Shown piece after piece: positions 32,412-40,990 of a DNA stretch of 64,000 nucleotides. The stretch lies in assembly GCF_009807095.1 (NCBI RefSeq), contig NZ_WUCC01000004.1:62001-126000 (forward strand). The letters are read 5' to 3'. The number at the start of each line of letters is the position of its first letter. The stretch's first letter is position 1. Origin of the DNA: Rathayibacter sp. VKM Ac-2754 (GTDB taxonomy: Bacteria > Actinomycetota > Actinomycetes > Actinomycetales > Microbacteriaceae). The notes below the pieces were generated by a model. It did no database searches. It saw only the letters and a program-made list of their open reading frames with translations, and was not told the DNA's origin. The translations under genes and the position numbers were made by a program.

Positions 32412-33405
32412 GGGTGTCCCGGTAGTGCTCGCCGACGCGGCGGATCCCCTCGGCCAGCGGCACCGTCGGCTCGTAGCCGAGCTCGGCGCGCGCCCGCGAG
32501 ATGTCGAGGGTCTGGGCGTAGGCGAGGGTCGCGACGGTGTACCGCGTGAACGGAGGCTCGGTGCCGCGCGGCAGCAGCGCGTAGACCTTCTCGAGCACCA
32601 CGGCGAGGGCGCTCAGGATGCGGAGGTCGACGGTGAGGTAGCGCGGCGTCTCGCCCATCGCGTCGAAGAACCGGTCGAGCAGGACGCCGAAGGGCTGCGG
32701 CTCGCCGTTGGTGATGTTGTAGACGCTCCCGGGGGCGACCGGCGCGGAGGCGGCCAGCAGCAGGGCGTGCGCCGCGTTCTCGACGCAGGTGACGTCGACG
32801 ATGTTGCGTCCGCCGTCGAAGAGCGGGATGCCGCGTCGCCGCGAGGCCGCGACGAAGCGCGGGATGAGGCTCGGGTCGCCCACTCCGATCAGCCCGCGCG
32901 GGCGGAGGATCACCAGCTCCTCGAGGCGGCCCGACGCGAGCGCCGCCTGCAGCAGGCGCTCGGCCTCGATCTTGCTGCGGATGTAGAGGCTCATCCGGCT
33001 GTCGGGGTCGAAGTCGTCCTCCCGCACCGCGAACTGGTGCCGCCGGGCCGAGTAGATGCTGGGCGACGAGACGAACACCAGGCGGCGGATCCGCGAGCTC
33101 TGCGCGAGGTCGATCATCGCCTCCGTGCCCGCCACGTTGGCCTCGTGGAACTCGCTCCAGCGGCCCCACGGGCTCGAGAGGGCTGCGGAGTGGACCAGCA
33201 CGTCGGCGCGCACCGGCATCGCGGCGAGCTGCGCGAGGTCGGCCTCGATCGTCTCGGCGCCCTCGGAGCGGAGCCTCTCGAGGGCGGCGGGGTTGCGGCC
33301 GGCCGCGATCACCTCGTCGCCCGCCGCCAGGAACTCCCGGACCGCGTAGCCGCCGAGGAACCCGGTCGCGCCGGTGATCAGCACGCGCCGTCGCTCAGCG
33401 GACAT
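32404..33405 (-). CDS. NAD(P)-dependent epimerase/3-beta-HSD-like extended SDR
   Basis: A 333-residue extended SDR. VLITGATGFLGGYAVREFL (near residue 8) is the Rossmann GxxGxxG; SVVFVSSPSIYS-like LVFVSSPSIYS precedes YIRSKIEAE, the YxxxK catalytic pair (about residues 140-144). Family resemblance is to NAD-dependent 3-beta-hydroxysteroid dehydrogenase/OleD-type reductases, which act on hydrophobic beta-keto or hydroxy substrates. It overlaps the glycosyltransferase by 11 bases at its start and the MBL hydrolase by 8 at its end. The KAS III gene on the other strand could provide its beta-keto substrate (inference). Confidence 0.88.
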   Translation of the reverse strand: MSAERRRVLITGATGFLGGYAVREFLAAGDEVIAAGRNPAALERLRSEGAETIEADLAQLAAMPVRADVLVHSAALSSPWGRWSEFHEANVAGTEAMIDLAQSSRIRRLVFVSSPSIYSARRHQFAVREDDFDPDSRMSLYIRSKIEAERLLQAALASGRLEELVILRPRGLIGVGDPSLIPRFVAASRRRGIPLFDGGRNIVDVTCVENAAHALLLAASAPVAPGSVYNITNGEPQPFGVLLDRFFDAMGETPRYLTVDLRILSALAVVLEKVYALLPRGTEPPFTRYTVATLAYAQTLDISRARAELGYEPTVPLAEGIRRVGEHYRDTRG

Positions 33406-34192
33406 CGATGACCGCCGTGGTCTTCTTGCGGTCCCAGTACCAGAGCAGGATCCCCAGGTAGCCGAGCGCCTTGCCCTTGCGGATCGACATGCGGACCACG
33501 GCGTGACGGTCCAGCCGCGCCTGCTCCCGCGGGATCACCTGGCACACCTTGAGGTGCAGCTCGAGATCCTCGTCGGTGTCGTCGATGCTCGAGCGGGGGA
33601 ACCCGTCGACCTCGAGGTACAGCGCGGCGTCGATCGCCATGTTCGAGCCGGCGGCCATGAAGAGCGGGTAGCGCTGCCCCGGTCGCCGGTAGAAGACGGC
33701 GGGCGCCCGCTCCAGCAGCCGGATCATCGCGGTGCCGATGACGCCGTCGTACCAGCGGTAGATCGGCTCGTCGGTGCGCGGATTCAGGCGCCCGCCGACG
33801 AATCGCGCTCCGCTCGCGACGTCGGCCTTCAGCCGCGCGACCCACTCGGCTCCGGGGAGGCAGTCGGCGTCCGTCCGCGCGATGACCGCGGCACCGTGCT
33901 CGATCGCGTAGCGGAACCCGGTGTCGGAGGCGGCTCCCGTGCCCTTCTGCCCCTCGGTGATCGTCATCACCTGCCGCCCCGGATGCCGGGCCGCGAAGGC
34001 GTCGATCACCGCGCGGGAGCCGTCGGTGCTCGCGTTGTCGACGAGGAGGAGGGTGAAGTCGGGATCGGTCTGGGCGGCGAGCGCCTCGAGGGCCCCGTCG
34101 AGCAGCTTCTCCTCGTTGTACAGCGGCACCACGACCCAGAAGGGGGTGGTGGCGCCCGAGGGCGTGCTGGGACCGGAGTGCTGCTCGCTCAT
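33395..34192 (-). CDS. Family 2 glycosyltransferase (GT-A)
   Basis: A 265-residue GT2 enzyme: WVVVPLYNEEKLLDGALEAL, LLLVDNASTDGSRAVIDAF (nucleotide-binding), ARTDADCLPGAEWV with the DxD metal site (DAD), and IDDTDEDLELHLKV containing the E/D-D catalytic-base block. No clear transmembrane helix besides a weak one near residues 235-250, so it probably works at the inner membrane face or on a soluble acceptor. GGGGGAG precedes the ATG at 34192. It is the first gene of the three-gene operon with the epimerase and MBL hydrolase, divergent from KAS III. Confidence 0.87.
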   Translation of the reverse strand: MSEQHSGPSTPSGATTPFWVVVPLYNEEKLLDGALEALAAQTDPDFTLLLVDNASTDGSRAVIDAFAARHPGRQVMTITEGQKGTGAASDTGFRYAIEHGAAVIARTDADCLPGAEWVARLKADVASGARFVGGRLNPRTDEPIYRWYDGVIGTAMIRLLERAPAVFYRRPGQRYPLFMAAGSNMAIDAALYLEVDGFPRSSIDDTDEDLELHLKVCQVIPREQARLDRHAVVRMSIRKGKALGYLGILLWYWDRKKTTAVIDVR

Positions 34193-34392
34193 CCGCTCCC
34201 CCTCCGCCGCTCGACCCGGCGACCCGCACCGGGTCACCGCCGCCGAACGCGGGGAGGCCCCGTCCATAGTGTCCGCGGAGCAGGGGGCCGTCAATCCGCG
34301 CCCGGCCTCGCCGCGCCGACATCGAGCTCGCATCGGCGGTATACAGAGAACGCTCGGATCGACCGTCGATCCGGAGCAGGAGGAACGCCACA
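34193..34392. promoter_or_regulatory. Divergent promoter region of the KAS III cluster
   Basis: The 200 bases between the glycosyltransferase and the KAS III gene must hold both promoters. TATACA at about 34338 is a plausible -10-like element for the KAS III gene, and GGAGCAGGAGGAAC is its ribosome-binding site. No obvious palindromic operator. Confidence 0.4.
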
Positions 34393-35367
34393 GTGCCCGA
34401 CACTCTGCCCATCCGCATCCTCGGCACCGGGGAGGCGCTTCCGGAGCGGGTCGTCGGCACCGCCGAGGTCGCCGCGCTCTGCGGCATCGACCCCGAGGAG
34501 GCGGCGCGGCGCAGCGGAGTGCTCACGCGGCACTGGCTCGCCGATGACGAAGACCCGCTCGAGCTCGGGCTGACGGCGGCGCGGCGCGCCCTGGACGCGG
34601 CCGGGATCGACGCGAGCGACGTGGACGTCGTGCTGAACGCCTCCGGGACGCAGCTGCAGGCCATCCCGGACGGCGGAGCCCTGCTGGCCGCCGGCCTCGG
34701 CCTCGACGACGTCTCGGCCTACAGCCTCAACGCGACCTGCCTGTCGTTCCTCTTCGCGCTGCAGGAGGCGGGGTTCCTGATCGCGACGGGCCGCGCCGAG
34801 CGGGTGCTCATCGTCTCGACCGAGGGCGGCAGCCGCGGCATCGACCTCGCCCAGCCCGAGAGCGCCCTCCTCTTCGGCGACGCCGCGGCGGCCGTCGTGG
34901 TCGGGCGCGCGGTGACTCCGGAGCAGGGCATCGTGGCCTCGAAGTTCCTGACCCGGCCCAGCGGAGTGCGGCACGCCGAGATCCGCGGGTTCGGCTCGCG
35001 GATCCGCATCGAGGAGGCGGCCGACCGGCTCTCCGACTTCCGCTTCGACATGCACGGAGGCGCGCTGCTGGTCGACGCGCTGCGGCACTTCCCGGCGTTC
35101 CTCGACACCGTCCGGCTCGGGCTCTCGAGCGGCACGCCCGGCATCGACCGCATCGTCCCGCACCAGACGAGCAAGGCCGGGCTCGAGGGCATGGCGCGTC
35201 TCTGGGGCCGGCAGAAGATGGTCGTGACGCTGGCCGACGTGGGCAACACGATCGGCGCGGCGATCCCGCTGGCCCTGCACCGGGCGCGGATCGAGCCGGC
35301 GGAGTCGGTGCTGCTCGTCGGGACGGGCGCGGGGACGCACTACGGGGCCGTGATCCTGCAGGCGTGA
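34393..35367 (+). CDS. Ketoacyl synthase III (KAS III/FabH)-like condensing enzyme
   Basis: A 324-residue thiolase-fold condensing enzyme with the KAS III triad intact: Cys116 in LNATCLSFLFAL, His257 in IVPHQTSKAG, Asn285 in GNTIGAAIP. ALPERVVGTAEVAALCGID and the ending LLVGTGAGTHYGAVIL match the family. FabH-type enzymes start fatty-acid chains from acyl-CoA; OleA- and other stand-alone relatives join two acyl groups. This gene is not in a fatty-acid operon but divergent from a glycosyltransferase/epimerase/MBL-hydrolase operon, so a specialised lipid or signal-molecule pathway is likely. AGGAGGA precedes the GTG. A terminator follows. Confidence 0.9.
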   Translation: MPDTLPIRILGTGEALPERVVGTAEVAALCGIDPEEAARRSGVLTRHWLADDEDPLELGLTAARRALDAAGIDASDVDVVLNASGTQLQAIPDGGALLAAGLGLDDVSAYSLNATCLSFLFALQEAGFLIATGRAERVLIVSTEGGSRGIDLAQPESALLFGDAAAAVVVGRAVTPEQGIVASKFLTRPSGVRHAEIRGFGSRIRIEEAADRLSDFRFDMHGGALLVDALRHFPAFLDTVRLGLSSGTPGIDRIVPHQTSKAGLEGMARLWGRQKMVVTLADVGNTIGAAIPLALHRARIEPAESVLLVGTGAGTHYGAVILQA

Positions 35368-35404
35368 CGGCCGCTGCGCCCTGAACGGCGCCTGGCAATG
35401 CAGA

Positions 35405-35440
35405 ACGGGCCGGCACCTCCGGAGTGGAGGGCCGGCCCGT
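35405..35440. terminator. Bidirectional terminator between convergent genes
   Basis: ACGGGCCGGC (35405-35414) pairs with GCCGGCCCGT (35431-35440), with further CTCC/GGAG pairing in the loop. It lies between the KAS III stop (35367) and the beta-helix gene stop (35456). Confidence 0.75.
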
Positions 35441-35455
35441 CGGCGGAGGGAGGCG

Positions 35456-37216
35456 CTACCTCAGCGTCACCGACACGGGCGAGCTCACGCGGATGTTCCC
35501 CGCTGCATCGGTCGCTCGGGCGGTGAGCGGGAAGGTCCCGCGCATGCCCGTCGTGCTCGTGGTCAGCGACCACGTGGACGCGCCGGTCTGGGTCGCGTCG
35601 CCGACCTTGAGGCTGCCGAGGTAGAAGGCGACGCCGGTCACAGCGGTGTCGTCAGTGGCCGTGACGGTGGCAGTCGTCGTGCCGCTGAGCACGGCACCGG
35701 GGAGCGGCGAGGTGATCGCGACCGACGGGGCGGTGGTGTCGGCGACCGGCACCTGGGGCTCGCTCGGCGCCTCGGAGTCCGGCGCGGTCGGCGGCGCGGT
35801 CGGCGTGGCGGTCGGCGTCGAGGTCGGGGTCGGAGTGGCGGTGGGGGTCGCGGTCGGCGTCGGCGTCGCGGTGGGCGTCGCCGTCGGAGTGGCCGTGGCG
35901 GTCGGGGTGGGCGTCGGCGTGGGTTCCGGCGTGCTCGGGATGGTCACCTCGTCCCAGCTGGCGACGAGGTGGGCGGTGGTCGGCCGCGTGCTCATCTCGT
36001 CGAGGTCGGCGGACGTCATCGAGGTCAGCGTGTTGTCGACCGTGAAGCCGCCGGTCCTCGCCGTCCGGTTGGTGAGGTTGGTGCGGGTGTTGTAGACGGC
36101 GTCCCAGGTCGGCTGGAGGGAGCCGATGAGGATCGAGTCGGACGCGTCGATGTTGCCGCCTCCGTTGCCCTGGATGGCGCTGAGGCTGCCCGCGCCGTTG
36201 ATGGCTCCGGGGTAGCCGGCGCCGCCGGCGAGGAACGGGTAGCGCTTGGCGGTGACGGTGCCGCCCACGATCAGCGACTGCTCGAACGCGACGTTCTTGA
36301 CGCCTCCGACGATGACGGCGCTGTTGTTCGAGCCGAACACGACGGTGTCCCTGACGGTGATCTGGCCGGTGACTCCCGAGCCCTCGATCTGGAGGCTGTC
36401 GGTGTGCGGCCGTGCCGGGTTGGAGCCGCCGTAGACCGCGTCGAGGTAGTACGACGGGGCGATGTAGCCGCCCTCGACCAGCACGTCGCTCATCACGTTC
36501 GGCGCGAACGCCTTGATCTGAGCCGAGTCGGCGCTCCTCAGGCGCGAGTCGGGCTCGACGACCTCGATGAGCTCCACGTCGCGCACCGGGGCGCCGGCCG
36601 AGGCGGCGAGGCCGACCCAGTTCTCGTTGACCCGGAGCCAGGCGAACGACGAGTGCGTCGCGCCCTTCACGTCGATCGAGTCGATGTCGAAGCGCATCAG
36701 GGTGATGCCCGTCACCGACTTCAGCGCCCAGTCGCCGCCGGTCACCGACCGGAAGCCGTCGCGCGCCGTGATCAGCACCTTGGTGCTTCCCGCGTTCTTG
36801 TAGCCGTTGAGGGCCGACAGGTCGGCGATGTAGCCGGGTGCCACCGCGATGACGGCCCCCGCCGCGATCTGGGCCTTCGTCAGGGCGTCGAGCGCCTTGC
36901 GGATCGCCGAGCCCGACGCCGCGACCTCCACGACCGTGTAGTCGGAGCCGGCGGAGCGGATGTCGGGGGTGTCCGACGGGTAGTGCGTGCCGTCGGGTCC
37001 GTAGGTCGACTCGGCGGCCGAGGCGGTCGGCGCGTCCAGGATCGAGACCGTCGACACGGCGATCCCCACCGCGGCCGTGATCGCGAGGATCCGGAGGAGG
37101 TCCTTCCTCGGTCGCCGGACCGCTCCGCCCAGTCCCTGTAGCTGCCGCGGACGCGACTCGGCTGCGGCGCCCGCAGGCAGGGGCGGTGAGGTGGGGGAGG
37201 GGGTGGCTCGTGCCAT
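35456..37216 (-). CDS. Secreted right-handed beta-helix protein with Thr/Pro linker and Ig-like domain
   Basis: A 586-residue exported protein. Residues 1-70 are a long basic N-terminus and signal segment (LLRILAITAAVGIAVSTVSIL..ASA). Residues about 75-405 are a parallel beta-helix with many short strands (LIVGGTVTAKRYPFLAGG; GGVKNVAFEQSLIVGG; GGNIDASDSILIGS), the fold of pectate lyases and other polysaccharide-active or -binding proteins; I cannot see a catalytic triad of a named lyase family. Residues about 410-480 are a PTPTATPTAT linker. The last 95 residues are a Big_9/Ig-like domain (TAPSVAITSPLPGAVLSGTT). GGAAGA precedes the ATG at 37216. No cell-wall sorting motif. Confidence 0.8.
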   Translation of the reverse strand: MARATPSPTSPPLPAGAAAESRPRQLQGLGGAVRRPRKDLLRILAITAAVGIAVSTVSILDAPTASAAESTYGPDGTHYPSDTPDIRSAGSDYTVVEVAASGSAIRKALDALTKAQIAAGAVIAVAPGYIADLSALNGYKNAGSTKVLITARDGFRSVTGGDWALKSVTGITLMRFDIDSIDVKGATHSSFAWLRVNENWVGLAASAGAPVRDVELIEVVEPDSRLRSADSAQIKAFAPNVMSDVLVEGGYIAPSYYLDAVYGGSNPARPHTDSLQIEGSGVTGQITVRDTVVFGSNNSAVIVGGVKNVAFEQSLIVGGTVTAKRYPFLAGGAGYPGAINGAGSLSAIQGNGGGNIDASDSILIGSLQPTWDAVYNTRTNLTNRTARTGGFTVDNTLTSMTSADLDEMSTRPTTAHLVASWDEVTIPSTPEPTPTPTPTATATPTATPTATPTPTATPTATPTPTSTPTATPTAPPTAPDSEAPSEPQVPVADTTAPSVAITSPLPGAVLSGTTTATVTATDDTAVTGVAFYLGSLKVGDATQTGASTWSLTTSTTGMRGTFPLTARATDAAGNIRVSSPVSVTLR

Positions 37217-37637
37217 GGGGTGTCTTCCGATCGTCTCGTGCTGGGGGAGGGTAACGACCGGAACACGTCGTGGCGGAAGCCTCGAGGCGCTCGTAGGGCC
37301 GGGACTCCTCCGACGGGGGAGGAGCCGGCTGCACGCGTCACTGCGTTCCGGGCGGATGGTGCGGGGAAGGGCCGCCGAACGGTGCCTGGTGCGCTGCTGC
37401 GTGGTGGAGCGGCAGTGCGGCGGGCGGTCGGGCGGTCGGCTCGTGACGGTCAGGGGGAGCTGGGGCGCCGATTCCGGCGCACCGGAGGGGTGGAACGGTC
37501 TGCGCCGTTCTTCAGAGTAGGCACAGCTACAGGTCGTTAATGTGCCTCGCACGGGGGCCAGTGCGAGGAGAAAGACTCAGGTCACGAAGGATTGATAGCA
37601 CGAGGCCGAGGGAACTCCTGTGCGTAGGTAGAAACGC
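37217..37637. other. Gene-poor upstream region
   Basis: About 420 bases before the beta-helix gene without a supported gene; open frames here read antisense or Gly/Arg-rich. A less GC-rich segment (37505-37625) probably holds the beta-helix promoter on the minus strand. Confidence 0.4.
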
Positions 37638-38329: not shown

Positions 38330-39046
38330 CTACTGCGAGAGCTCCAGGTCGAGCCGGTCCAGGAGTGCTTCCAGAGAGATCTCGAACTCCTCGTCACTCC
38401 GGTCCTCGCTGAGCAGGTCGCGCAGGCGCAGGACCTCCGGCGCGACGTCGAGCGACATCGTGCCGTCGCCCTGCGGCAGAGCAGCGTCTCCCTCGTCGAG
38501 CGGCTCTTCGACGGGTGACGTCTCGGCTCCGTGGATCGTGGCCTGCAGCAGCAGCTGACCGAGCAGGAAGCTGCTGAACGCGCGGTAGGCGCCGACGGCC
38601 CGCTCGTCCGAGAACCCGTGCGACGTCAGCGCACTGAGGAACGTGTTGACGACCTCGACGCTCCGCAGCGGCGGTCGCAGCCAGGGGGCGGCGGGGTGTC
38701 GCGTCGCGACCAGGGGGAATGCTCGTGGGTGGTCTGTCGCGATTCGACGGACCTCGTGGGCCACGACCTGCAGGAATCCCTGCCAGTGCTCCGCCTCCGA
38801 CTCGTCGAGATGGGAGTTGAGATCTCGCATCAGCAGCGAGATGACGCCCTCGAGCAGGTCCTCCTTGCCATGCACGTACCGGTAGAGCGACATCGCCTCG
38901 ACGCCCAGTTCCTGCGCGAGGGAGCGCATCGACAGGCTCTGGCTCCCCGATCTGTCGATCTGCGTCAGGGCGGTCGTGACGATCAGCTCCCTGCTGAGCC
39001 TCGGCGCAGTCGATCCGCCCCTGTTCGTCTTCGTGTTCCCAGTGAT
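38330..39046 (-). CDS. TetR-family repressor with apparent ATC start codon
   Basis: Coding similarity to TetR regulators runs for 238 codons. The N-terminal DNA-binding domain needs residues 1-64: PRLSRELIVTTALTQIDRSG, then LSMRSLAQELGVEAMSLYRYV (recognition helix). The only ATG in frame (38929) would delete the first helix. Upstream in frame there is no ATG, GTG or TTG back to a stop at about 39125. Instead GGGAGG (39053-39058) stands 6 bases before an ATC at 39046, exactly where a start should be. So either ATC starts translation poorly, or a G-to-C change disabled the gene. It faces the DUF2382 gene across a region with two CTTACnnnGTAAG sites. Confidence 0.8.
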   Translation of the reverse strand: MTGNTKTNRGGSTAPRLSRELIVTTALTQIDRSGSQSLSMRSLAQELGVEAMSLYRYVHGKEDLLEGVISLLMRDLNSHLDESEAEHWQGFLQVVAHEVRRIATDHPRAFPLVATRHPAAPWLRPPLRSVEVVNTFLSALTSHGFSDERAVGAYRAFSSFLLGQLLLQATIHGAETSPVEEPLDEGDAALPQGDGTMSLDVAPEVLRLRDLLSEDRSDEEFEISLEALLDRLDLELSQ

Positions 39047-39132
39047 GGCGGGCCTCCCGTAGCGATCCTCACACCCCGCTACCAGCGTCGCGCGTGAAAA
39101 ACAACCGGGTGGAGCTCCCCACCCTAATCAGA

Positions 39133-39169
39133 CTTACTTTGTAAGCTCCACTTTGGCTTACACCGTAAG
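39133..39169. promoter_or_regulatory. Twin operators CTTACnnnGTAAG between TetR and DUF2382 genes
   Basis: CTTAC-TTT-GTAAG (39133-39145) and CTTAC-ACC-GTAAG (39157-39169) are 24 bases apart centre to centre, about two helical turns and a bit. They lie in the divergent promoter region, the usual place for TetR-family autoregulatory operators. Confidence 0.7.
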
Positions 39170-39279: not shown

Positions 39280-40110
39280 GTGATCGACAGCACCACCATC
39301 GACAACCTCATCGGCGCCGACGTGCGCGGCAGCGACGACGCCAAGATCGGCACCGTCGGCCAGGTCTACGTCGCCGACGACTCGCAGACCCCCACCTGGG
39401 TCACCATCCGCACCGGACTGTTCGGCTCCTCCGAGTCGTTCGCACCCCTGCAGGACGCGACCTACGAGGGCGGCGTCCTGCGCGTGCCCTACGAGAAGTC
39501 CTTCGTCAAGGACGCCCCGCGCGTCGACGACGACGGCGCCCTCAACGCCGACGAGGAGCAGACGCTCTACTCCTACTACGGCCGGGGCGACAGCTACTCC
39601 GCACCGACCGAGGCGCCCCTCTACGACCAGGACGCCGACCGCACCGCCGGCAACACTGCCGGCACCGAGGGCTACGACACCTCCGGCCCCACGACCGATG
39701 ACGCGATGACCCGCTCCGAGGAGCGCCTCCGCGTCGGCACCGAGAAGGTCGAGGCGGGCCGCGCGCGCCTCCGCAAGCACGTGGTCACCGAGCAGGTCAC
39801 GAAGACCGTCCCCGTCAGCCACGAGGAGGTCCGCGTCACCCGCGAGCCGATCACTGACGCGAACGCCGACAACGCCCTCTCCGGTCCGGAGCTCAGCGAG
39901 GAGGAGCACGAAGTGATCCTCACCGGCGAGCGTGTCGTCACCGCGAAGGAGACGGTCCCCGTCGAGCGTGTGTCGCTCGGCACCGAGACCGTCACCGAGC
40001 AGCAGACGGTGACCGAGGACGTCGCCCACGAGGAGATCGAGGTCCTCGAGCCCACCACCCGCTCCACCGCGACCGACGACACCGTCGTCGACCGCGGCAA
40101 CCGCTCCTAA
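39280..40110 (+). CDS. PRC-barrel plus DUF2382 (YsnF/AvaK-type) protein
   Basis: A 276-residue acidic soluble protein. Residues about 5-75 form a PRC-barrel (LIGADVRGSDDAKIGTVGQV, TWVTIRTGLFG, VPYEKSFVKDAP), residues about 80-140 a flexible linker, and residues about 150-255 a DUF2382 domain (RSEERLRVGTEKVEAGRARL, TVPVSHEEVRVTREPI, GERVVTAKETVPVERVSLGT). DUF2382 proteins are stress-linked in several bacteria (B. subtilis YsnF, cyanobacterial AvaK); their molecular role is unknown. GTG start after GGAGGA. Twin operator sites lie upstream, and a membrane channel and a second DUF2382 gene follow. Confidence 0.88.
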   Translation: MIDSTTIDNLIGADVRGSDDAKIGTVGQVYVADDSQTPTWVTIRTGLFGSSESFAPLQDATYEGGVLRVPYEKSFVKDAPRVDDDGALNADEEQTLYSYYGRGDSYSAPTEAPLYDQDADRTAGNTAGTEGYDTSGPTTDDAMTRSEERLRVGTEKVEAGRARLRKHVVTEQVTKTVPVSHEEVRVTREPITDANADNALSGPELSEEEHEVILTGERVVTAKETVPVERVSLGTETVTEQQTVTEDVAHEEIEVLEPTTRSTATDDTVVDRGNRS

Positions 40111-40225: not shown

Positions 40226-40990
40226 ATGGATTTCCCCGCCGCACTTCAGAACGGACTCGCCGCGGTCATCGCGTTCGTCCCGCTCGCACTGCTGTTCCTG
40301 CTCATCCTCATCGTCGGCCTCATCGTCGCGAAGCTCATCGAGAAGGGCCTCTCCCGGCTCCTCACGAAGGTCGGCTTCGACCGCGCCGTCGAGCGCGGCG
40401 GTATCAAGAAGGCCCTCGCGAACTCGAAGCTCGACGCCTCCGACATCGTGTCGAAGATCATCTACTACACGCTGGTGCTGTTCGTTCTCCAGTTCGCCTT
40501 CGGTGTCTTCGGGCAGAACCCGGTCAGCGACCTGCTCCAGGGCATCATCGGGTTCCTCCCGAAGATCATCGTGGCGATCATCATCATCGTCATCGCCGCG
40601 GCGATCGCCGCCGGCGCCAAGGGGCTCATTCAGAACACGCTCGGCGGTCTCTCCTACGGCAAGGTCCTCGGGAACATCGTCGCCGTCTTCATCCTGTTCC
40701 TCGGAGCGACCGCTGCGCTGAACCAGATCGAGGTCGCCACGACCGTCACCACGCCGATCCTCATCGCGGTCCTCGCCATCATCGCCGGCGTCATCATCGT
40801 GGGTGCGGGCGGCGGGCTCATCAAGCCGATGCAGCAGCGCTGGGAGACGATCCTCACCAAGGCCGAGGACGAGGCTCCGAAGATCCAGCAGCACGCTCAG
40901 AACGCGCCGAGCGTGAAGGAGCAGGCCGAGCAGGCCGCGCGCAAGGCGCAGCAGGCCGCGCCGACGACGACCACTCGCCGTTCGAGCTGA
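40226..40990 (+). CDS. CmpX-like membrane protein (TM-helix repeat, mechanosensitive-channel related)
   Basis: A 254-residue membrane protein. Helices at about residues 12-36, 80-97, 108-135, 148-165 and 175-200 include the conserved TM_helix repeats (FLPKIIVAIIIIVIAAAIAAG, VIAFVPLALLFLLILIVGLI) of CmpX/MscS-like proteins, without the MscS beta domain. The C-terminal 55 residues are a soluble charged helix. CmpX in Pseudomonas affects membrane tension and cell-surface state. GGAAGG precedes the ATG. It lies 115 bases after the PRC/DUF2382 gene, same strand, and ends in a very strong terminator. Confidence 0.85.
   Translation: MDFPAALQNGLAAVIAFVPLALLFLLILIVGLIVAKLIEKGLSRLLTKVGFDRAVERGGIKKALANSKLDASDIVSKIIYYTLVLFVLQFAFGVFGQNPVSDLLQGIIGFLPKIIVAIIIIVIAAAIAAGAKGLIQNTLGGLSYGKVLGNIVAVFILFLGATAALNQIEVATTVTTPILIAVLAIIAGVIIVGAGGGLIKPMQQRWETILTKAEDEAPKIQQHAQNAPSVKEQAEQAARKAQQAAPTTTTRRSS

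What the first reader, a model, noticed from the sequence alone, without database searches (positions are those of the whole stretch)
38330..39046. TetR repressor gene with a strong Shine-Dalgarno site but only ATC at the start position
Seen directly: GGGAGG is 6 bases upstream of ATC, and the reading frame after it encodes a standard TetR N-terminus (PRLSRELIVTTAL..). No ATG, GTG or TTG occurs in frame back to the upstream stop. The internal ATG (codon 40) would remove the first helix of the DNA-binding domain. Known: ATC/ATT starts are rare but real (for example E. coli infC uses ATT) and can give very low, self-regulated expression. Inference: either a natural non-canonical start that keeps the repressor scarce, or a recent G-to-C mutation that derepresses the DUF2382 genes opposite.
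Basis: partly seen in the sequence, partly recalled or inferred. Interest (0 to 1): 0.75.

Follow-up and report, generated by a model that had tools for sequence, protein, structure and literature searches.

The report
TetR repressor starting at ATC codon
A bacterial repressor gene next to a stress-gene cluster lacks any normal start codon and most likely starts, weakly, at ATC, the codon with which the same bacterium seems to start its own start-codon proofreading factor; some distant relatives of the repressor show the same feature.

Summary
In detail: the minus-strand TetR gene (38330-39046) has GGGAGG six bases before ATC and no in-frame ATG/GTG/TTG back to a stop 27 codons upstream. The next start-like codon is codon 40, a Met in 64 of 64 aligned orthologues, inside the DNA-binding domain. 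The genome is a Rathayibacter. Of 17 close orthologues, 13 carry a standard start (11 GTG, 2 ATG) at exactly this position and 4 nearby. Of 108 distinct homologues, four lack a standard start within 50 codons of the DNA-binding domain: this gene and three of a distant Terrabacter-type clade. All four have ATC after a Shine-Dalgarno site. The three remain under purifying selection (dN/dS 0.20-0.27). infC has ATC in start position in 15 of 15 Rathayibacter genomes. The gene shows no sign of decay, and its twin operators, the only exact copies in the 3.97-Mb genome, are intact. ATC is therefore probably a working, weak, IF3-sensitive start, as for Streptomyces sigR (GTC) and Staphylococcus ccpN (AUA). 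Translation was not shown. A base error or a recent start loss is not excluded for this strain. The 'derepressing mutation' reading is less likely, and the Shine-Dalgarno site is of ordinary strength.

The parts
38330..39046 (-). TetR-family repressor gene, 238 codons plus stop, ATC in start position
   Evidence: PF00440 residues 22-66 and PF02909 residues 84-230
39044..39046 (-). ATC codon at the position of the start codon of 13 of 17 close orthologues
39053..39058 (-). Shine-Dalgarno GGGAGG, 6 nt before ATC
   Evidence: energy rank 54 of 90
39128..39130 (-). in-frame stop TGA upstream; no ATG/GTG/TTG between it and codon 40
38927..38929 (-). internal ATG, codon 40: Met in 64 of 64 aligned orthologues, inside the HTH domain
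39121..39126 (-). TAGGGT, -10-like box 6 nt after the gene-proximal operator; a TAnnGT box stands there in 16 of 18 loci, by eye
   Evidence: sequences; the consensus scan found no promoter
39133..39145 (.). operator-like palindrome CTTACTTTGTAAG (gene-proximal)
   Evidence: 0 expected by chance; conserved; only two exact sites of the motif in the genome
39157..39169 (.). operator-like palindrome CTTACACCGTAAG
39280..40110 (+). divergent PRC-barrel/DUF2382 gene (GTG start)
   Evidence: PF05239 and PF09557
40226..40990 (+). mechanosensitive-channel TM-helix family gene
   Evidence: PF05552
41087..41482 (+). second DUF2382 gene
   Evidence: PF09557; stretch 38329-41409 matches one relative in a single place

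Best explanation
The TetR gene is intact and is translated from ATC (AUC in the mRNA), guided by its Shine-Dalgarno site. Shown: the sequence; the standard start codon of close orthologues at this position; ATC in start position in a distant clade of the same regulator; the conserved ATC of infC in the same genome; the constraint on the gene and its operators. Inferred: AUC initiates poorly and is discriminated against by IF3, so the repressor is kept scarce; the repressor binds the twin CTTACnnnGTAAG sites and represses the divergent DUF2382/MS-channel operon and itself. When IF3 discrimination is relaxed, more repressor is made; when it is strong, less.
For: Of 108 distinct homologues (137 loci that passed, of 176 given), 86 have a standard start with a Shine-Dalgarno site, 17 a standard codon without one, 5 none within 50 codons; one of the five (L222) has an ATG 54 codons up. 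The remaining four, the window gene and L082, L084, L086, all have ATC 6-7 nt after a Shine-Dalgarno site. The last three form, with L085 (ATG), a clade supported 100/99, far from Rathayibacter; dN/dS among the three is 0.20-0.27. infC has ATC after a Shine-Dalgarno site in 15 of 15 Rathayibacter genomes and in 19 of 21 other loci of the order (one ATT, one not located). Window gene: 0 departures at 52 invariant and 89 nearly invariant columns of 64 orthologues, and dN/dS 0.11-0.32 against relatives, like relatives among themselves. Twin operators intact, with no other exact copy in the genome.
Against: No translation data. In its own clade only the window genome has ATC: the other six Rathayibacter orthologues and the Curtobacterium-group ones examined have a standard start. 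An intact coding sequence is also expected after a very recent start loss, and the column test discriminates little: all 30 rows printed had 0 departures at invariant columns and 23 of 30 had 0 at nearly invariant ones. The Shine-Dalgarno site is ordinary; of the other three ATC cases two rank high (9th, 15th of 90) and one low (75th). L084 has a TTG 58 codons before the HTH without a Shine-Dalgarno site; L086 is from a metagenome-assembled genome. Some infC frames, this genome's included, hold a GTG further up.
Confidence: 0.68

Rival explanations
1. Recent start-loss mutation in this strain: little or no repressor is made, and the DUF2382/MS-channel operon is derepressed.
For: 13 of 17 close orthologues have GTG or ATG at this position; the other six genus orthologues have a standard start; an intact coding sequence would persist for a while.
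Against: In a distant clade the three start-less orthologues all have ATC, none another near-cognate codon, and stay constrained; infC suggests that this genome uses ATC; operators intact.
Confidence: 0.17
2. Base-calling or assembly error at the start codon.
For: Only one genome of the species was available and no reads; an isolated anomaly.
Against: Assembly 99.99% complete in 24 contigs; no comparable case with a Shine-Dalgarno site in 269 compared frames; 11 of 13 orthologues with a start at this position have GTG, two bases from ATC; ATC cases in three other assemblies.
Confidence: 0.08
3. Translation starts elsewhere: at an upstream in-frame near-cognate such as CTG 13 codons before ATC, or at the internal ATG.
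For: The frame is open for 27 codons upstream; N-terminal extensions exist in L044 and L010.
Against: By eye no purine-rich site precedes the CTG; starts of 13 of 17 close orthologues align at the ATC position; codon 40 is an invariant Met inside the HTH.
Confidence: 0.07

Closest known systems
sigR of Streptomyces (GTC start repressed by IF3; PMC5472188, start of abstract and passages seen)
   Same: actinobacterial stress regulator with a start codon other than ATG/GTG/TTG; infC of the same organisms starts with ATC; the scarcity of the regulator matters
   Different: a sigma factor with GTC, not a TetR repressor with ATC; tested experimentally there, only inferred here
infC, encoding IF3 (ATC in this genome and genus)
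   Same: same codon in start position after a Shine-Dalgarno site, same genome
   Different: essential translation factor with autocontrol (PMC5472188, passage); ATC conserved in 19 of 21 further loci of the order, whereas ATC in tetR is patchy
ccpN of Staphylococcus aureus (AUA start; PMC13009471, start of abstract and passages seen)
   Same: transcriptional repressor with a non-canonical start; about 10-30% of AUG reporter output
   Different: other repressor (family membership not compared here), other codon, Firmicutes; start conserved between S. aureus and B. subtilis
TetR (PF00440/PF02909) local repressors with divergent target operon
   Same: HTH and C-terminal domains, palindromic operators in the divergent region
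   Different: no standard start codon; target is a DUF2382/MS-channel cassette; ligand unknown

Membership tests
TetR-family repressor | TetR_N HTH domain | tested here: met
   PF00440 25.8 bits, cut-off 24
TetR-family repressor | TetR-type C-terminal domain | tested here: met
   PF02909 34.4 bits, cut-off 21
TetR-family repressor | palindromic operator near a divergent target | tested here: met
   two CTTACnnnGTAAG sites, conserved in relatives, no other exact copy in the genome; binding not shown
TetR-family repressor | DNA binding and ligand release | not testable with these tools
   needs biochemistry
IF3-controlled gene with non-canonical start | no ATG/GTG/TTG at the start | tested here: met
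IF3-controlled gene with non-canonical start | near-cognate codon placed after a Shine-Dalgarno site | tested here: met
   GGGAGG, 6 nt, ATC
IF3-controlled gene with non-canonical start | start codon conserved among orthologues | tested here: not met
   in the window's own clade relatives have GTG or ATG; in the Terrabacter-type clade ATC is in 3 of 4
IF3-controlled gene with non-canonical start | translation observed and changed by IF3 level or fidelity | not testable with these tools
   no expression data

The most novel reading that the evidence does not exclude
AUC is a recurrently evolved control element of this TetR family: it couples repressor synthesis to IF3 and 30S initiation fidelity, the same handle that sets infC, so that a stress or cold state with high IF3 discrimination lowers the repressor and opens the DUF2382/MS-channel cassette.
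Probability: 0.25. Interest if true: 0.72.

Novelty: new member of a known kind. Interest (0 to 1): 0.5.

Why it matters
Gene prediction leans on ATG, GTG and TTG (stated in PMC5472188, passage), so such regulators would be called broken or given a false start. If true, AUC starts in one repressor family in at least two lineages suggest that weak start codons are a reusable way to hold regulators scarce and tie them to the translation machinery in Actinobacteria, testable with the IF3 fidelity strains of that paper.

Tried and rejected
Internal start at codon 40: rejected, Met in 64 of 64 aligned orthologues and inside the HTH. Decay of the gene: no signal; the first 23 HTH codons of the window give dN/dS 0.17-0.67 against 11 relatives, within the wide range of 21 control pairs (0.07-1.14), so this short test says little. 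Special leader structure: none, z 0.54. The terminator-like stem at 39124-39107 overlaps the -10-like box and would be only partly transcribed; set aside. Unusually strong Shine-Dalgarno site: not so. A first, looser count of missing starts gave 62 noisy candidates of 176 and was replaced. L222, first counted as lacking a start, has an ATG 54 codons upstream and was removed. One search read 22 loci, L222 and 21 new ones from the class search; all hold a standard codon, though one (L275) has only a GTG and a TTG without a Shine-Dalgarno site, and an ATC with one; left open.

Coverage and rows dropped: one search kept 79 loci (best 80 of 232 relatives). One search listed 62 matches, of which 30 became loci; the other 32 were not read. 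In one search, homologues under 200 bits and 5 duplicates were dropped. In one search, L001, L005, L007, L008, L009, L093 and weak or partial matches were dropped (93 of 112 loci kept). In one search, 137 of 176 loci passed the E-value and HTH-cover test; the 17 with a standard codon but no Shine-Dalgarno site were counted as standard.

Literature: the phrases 'ATC/AUC start codon' and 'ATC/AUC initiation codon' gave 32 papers, 30 listed, mostly mitochondrial genomes by title; a few concern bacteria or archaea (PMC10210955, PMC10303841, PMC2678158) and were not opened. infC with 'ATC start codon' gave none; DUF2382 with TetR, and noncanonical start codon with TetR and IF3, one each; some searches gave further listings. 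Apart from the passages cited (and passages of PMC9845219), papers were seen in listings only. I saw no report of an ATC-started tetR in these listings and passages.

Full report
WHAT IS THERE. The gene is on the minus strand, 39046 down to 38330: GGGAGG, six bases, ATC, 238 codons in all, stop. Upstream the frame is open for 27 codons to TGA (39130-39128) with no ATG, GTG or TTG; the next start-like codon is ATG at codon 40 (38929). The product is a TetR-family protein (PF00440 residues 22-66, PF02909 residues 84-230). The window lies in G000, contig 19 of a 3.97-Mb genome in 24 contigs, 99.99% complete. Its genus is Rathayibacter: same-genus genome G001 carries the same coding sequence as the record of Rathayibacter iranicus.

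SURROUNDINGS. Divergently lie a PRC/DUF2382 gene, a mechanosensitive-channel TM-helix gene and a second DUF2382 gene. The block 38329-41409 matches one relative (G010) in one place at 77%, and others in part; G007, which has the longest flanking match (85% over 33000-37431), and G003 lack the tetR. Seven of 15 genus genomes, the window's included, have the tetR at E <= 1e-40. Between the divergent genes stand two palindromes CTTACnnnGTAAG, 24 bp apart. Both are present in 16 of the 18 loci printed; R. iranicus (L034) and L061 show one exact copy each. They are the only exact copies in the genome, and the reversed control pattern has none; inexact copies were not sought. By eye a TAnnGT box follows the gene-proximal palindrome by six bases in 16 of the 18 loci, so I infer that the tetR promoter lies next to its own operator. 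This local regulator thus probably controls itself and the DUF2382 cassette.

THE START CODON IN RELATIVES. Of the 17 orthologues printed beside the window gene (Rathayibacter, Curtobacterium, Frondihabitans, Frigoribacterium and one unnamed Microbacteriaceae), 13 have a standard codon exactly at the ATC position in ungapped alignment, 11 GTG and 2 ATG; the other four (L039, L042, L044, L010) have one elsewhere. Over 93 loci the window gene was the only one with no standard codon before the HTH. Looking closer, three orthologues of Terrabacter type had no standard start served by a Shine-Dalgarno site: L082 (AGAAGGAGG, 6 nt, ATC), L086 (GGAGAGGAG, 6 nt, ATC) and L084 (AAGGAG, 7 nt, ATC). L082 and L086 have only a TTG at or just before the first conserved HTH residue; L084 has a TTG 58 codons before it without a Shine-Dalgarno site. 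Their relative L085 (Terrabacter tumescens) has ATG. By eye a shared TAGACAGGA box precedes the start in all four, 22-25 bases before ATC in the three and 35 before ATG in L085. Wider searches covered 186 genomes of that family, 398 of Microbacteriaceae and 396 of the order (in one search only 30 of 62 listed matches became loci). Of 176 loci given, 137 passed, 108 of them distinct: 86 standard with Shine-Dalgarno, 17 standard without, 5 none within 50 codons, of which one was later removed. All four remaining cases have ATC. A search of 394 genomes of the class gave no further clear case.

INDEPENDENCE AND CONSTRAINT. In a maximum-likelihood tree the Terrabacter-type four form a clade with 100/99 support, far from the Rathayibacter/Curtobacterium clade. 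Most simply, ATC starts arose at least twice. Among the three ATC genes dN/dS is 0.20-0.27 at synonymous p-distances of 0.41-0.45, over 224 codons from the HTH on, so I infer that they have been translated and useful over a long time; if ATC is ancestral there (one change to ATG in L085, against three gains; inner fork 81/84), it has been the working start for that time. The window protein has 0 departures at 52 invariant and at 89 nearly invariant columns of 64 sequences, but so have most relatives: of 30 rows printed, all have 0 at the former and 23 have 0 at the latter. Its dN/dS with relatives is 0.11-0.32; relatives among themselves give 0.12-0.41. These tests cannot see a very recent loss.

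THE ORGANISM PROBABLY USES ATC. infC has ATC after AGAGGAG at its conserved start position in 15 of 15 Rathayibacter genomes, this one included. Of 21 further loci from 22 genomes of the order, 19 have ATC, one ATT, one was not located by my motif; one genome gave no match. Some of these frames hold a standard codon further up (in this genome a GTG 34 codons before the ATC), so the reading rests on conservation and on print: infC starts with ATC in Streptomyces (PMC5472188, passage). As a base rate, 253 of 269 coding-like frames shared by 400 kb of G000 and 400 kb of G007 have an aligned standard start; none of the other 16 has a Shine-Dalgarno site before the G007 codon, though one of them is ATG there and ATC here.

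MECHANISM. From PMC5472188 (start of abstract and passages): IF3 represses initiation at codons other than ATG, GTG, TTG; Streptomyces sigR uses GTC, and its scarcity is needed for the switch to work. From PMC13009471 (passages): the repressor ccpN of S. aureus starts at AUA with about 10-30% of AUG reporter output, depending on medium. PMC12350097 (passages) reports that AUC is among the seven strongest initiation codons in an E. coli survey, which I could not read itself. By analogy the AUC start here should hold the repressor low and make it sensitive to IF3. That step is inference. The Shine-Dalgarno site is of middling strength for the family (54th of 90; the three other ATC cases rank 9th, 15th and 75th), and the leader has no unusual fold.

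VERDICT. It is a new member of a known kind, weakly started regulators under IF3 discrimination, with the added point that ATC recurs in this TetR family. A base error or a recent loss in this single genome remains possible, at about 0.25 together.

Noticed in passing
L126-L140 and L244-L264 (infC loci): infC has ATC in start position after a Shine-Dalgarno site in 15 of 15 Rathayibacter and 19 of 21 further loci of the order; one has ATT (L254), one was not located.
   Followed up: yes
L082 (as L181), L084, L085, L086, upstream of tetR: The Terrabacter-type tetR is divergent from an MS-channel gene (likeness to window 40226-40990 by eye), with one TTACGTTGTAA site just before that gene, 232-357 nt from the tetR HTH, so target repression without autorepression is possible.
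   Followed up: partly
L044 and L010, tetR N-terminus: Two Rathayibacter orthologues start at an ATG further up and carry a charged N-terminal extension, about 25 and 18 residues longer than usual.
   Followed up: no
39107-39124 (-): A terminator-like stem (7 pairs, loop of 4, then a T-rich tail) overlaps the -10-like box of tetR (0.1 expected).
   Followed up: partly
35456-37552 (-): Long frame with a Pro-Thr repeat linker near its C-terminus; many partial DNA matches at several places in genus genomes.
   Followed up: no
G000:C21:284722-285552: A second stretch like the PRC/DUF2382 gene (75% DNA identity) elsewhere in the genome, with no exact operator copy there.
   Followed up: no
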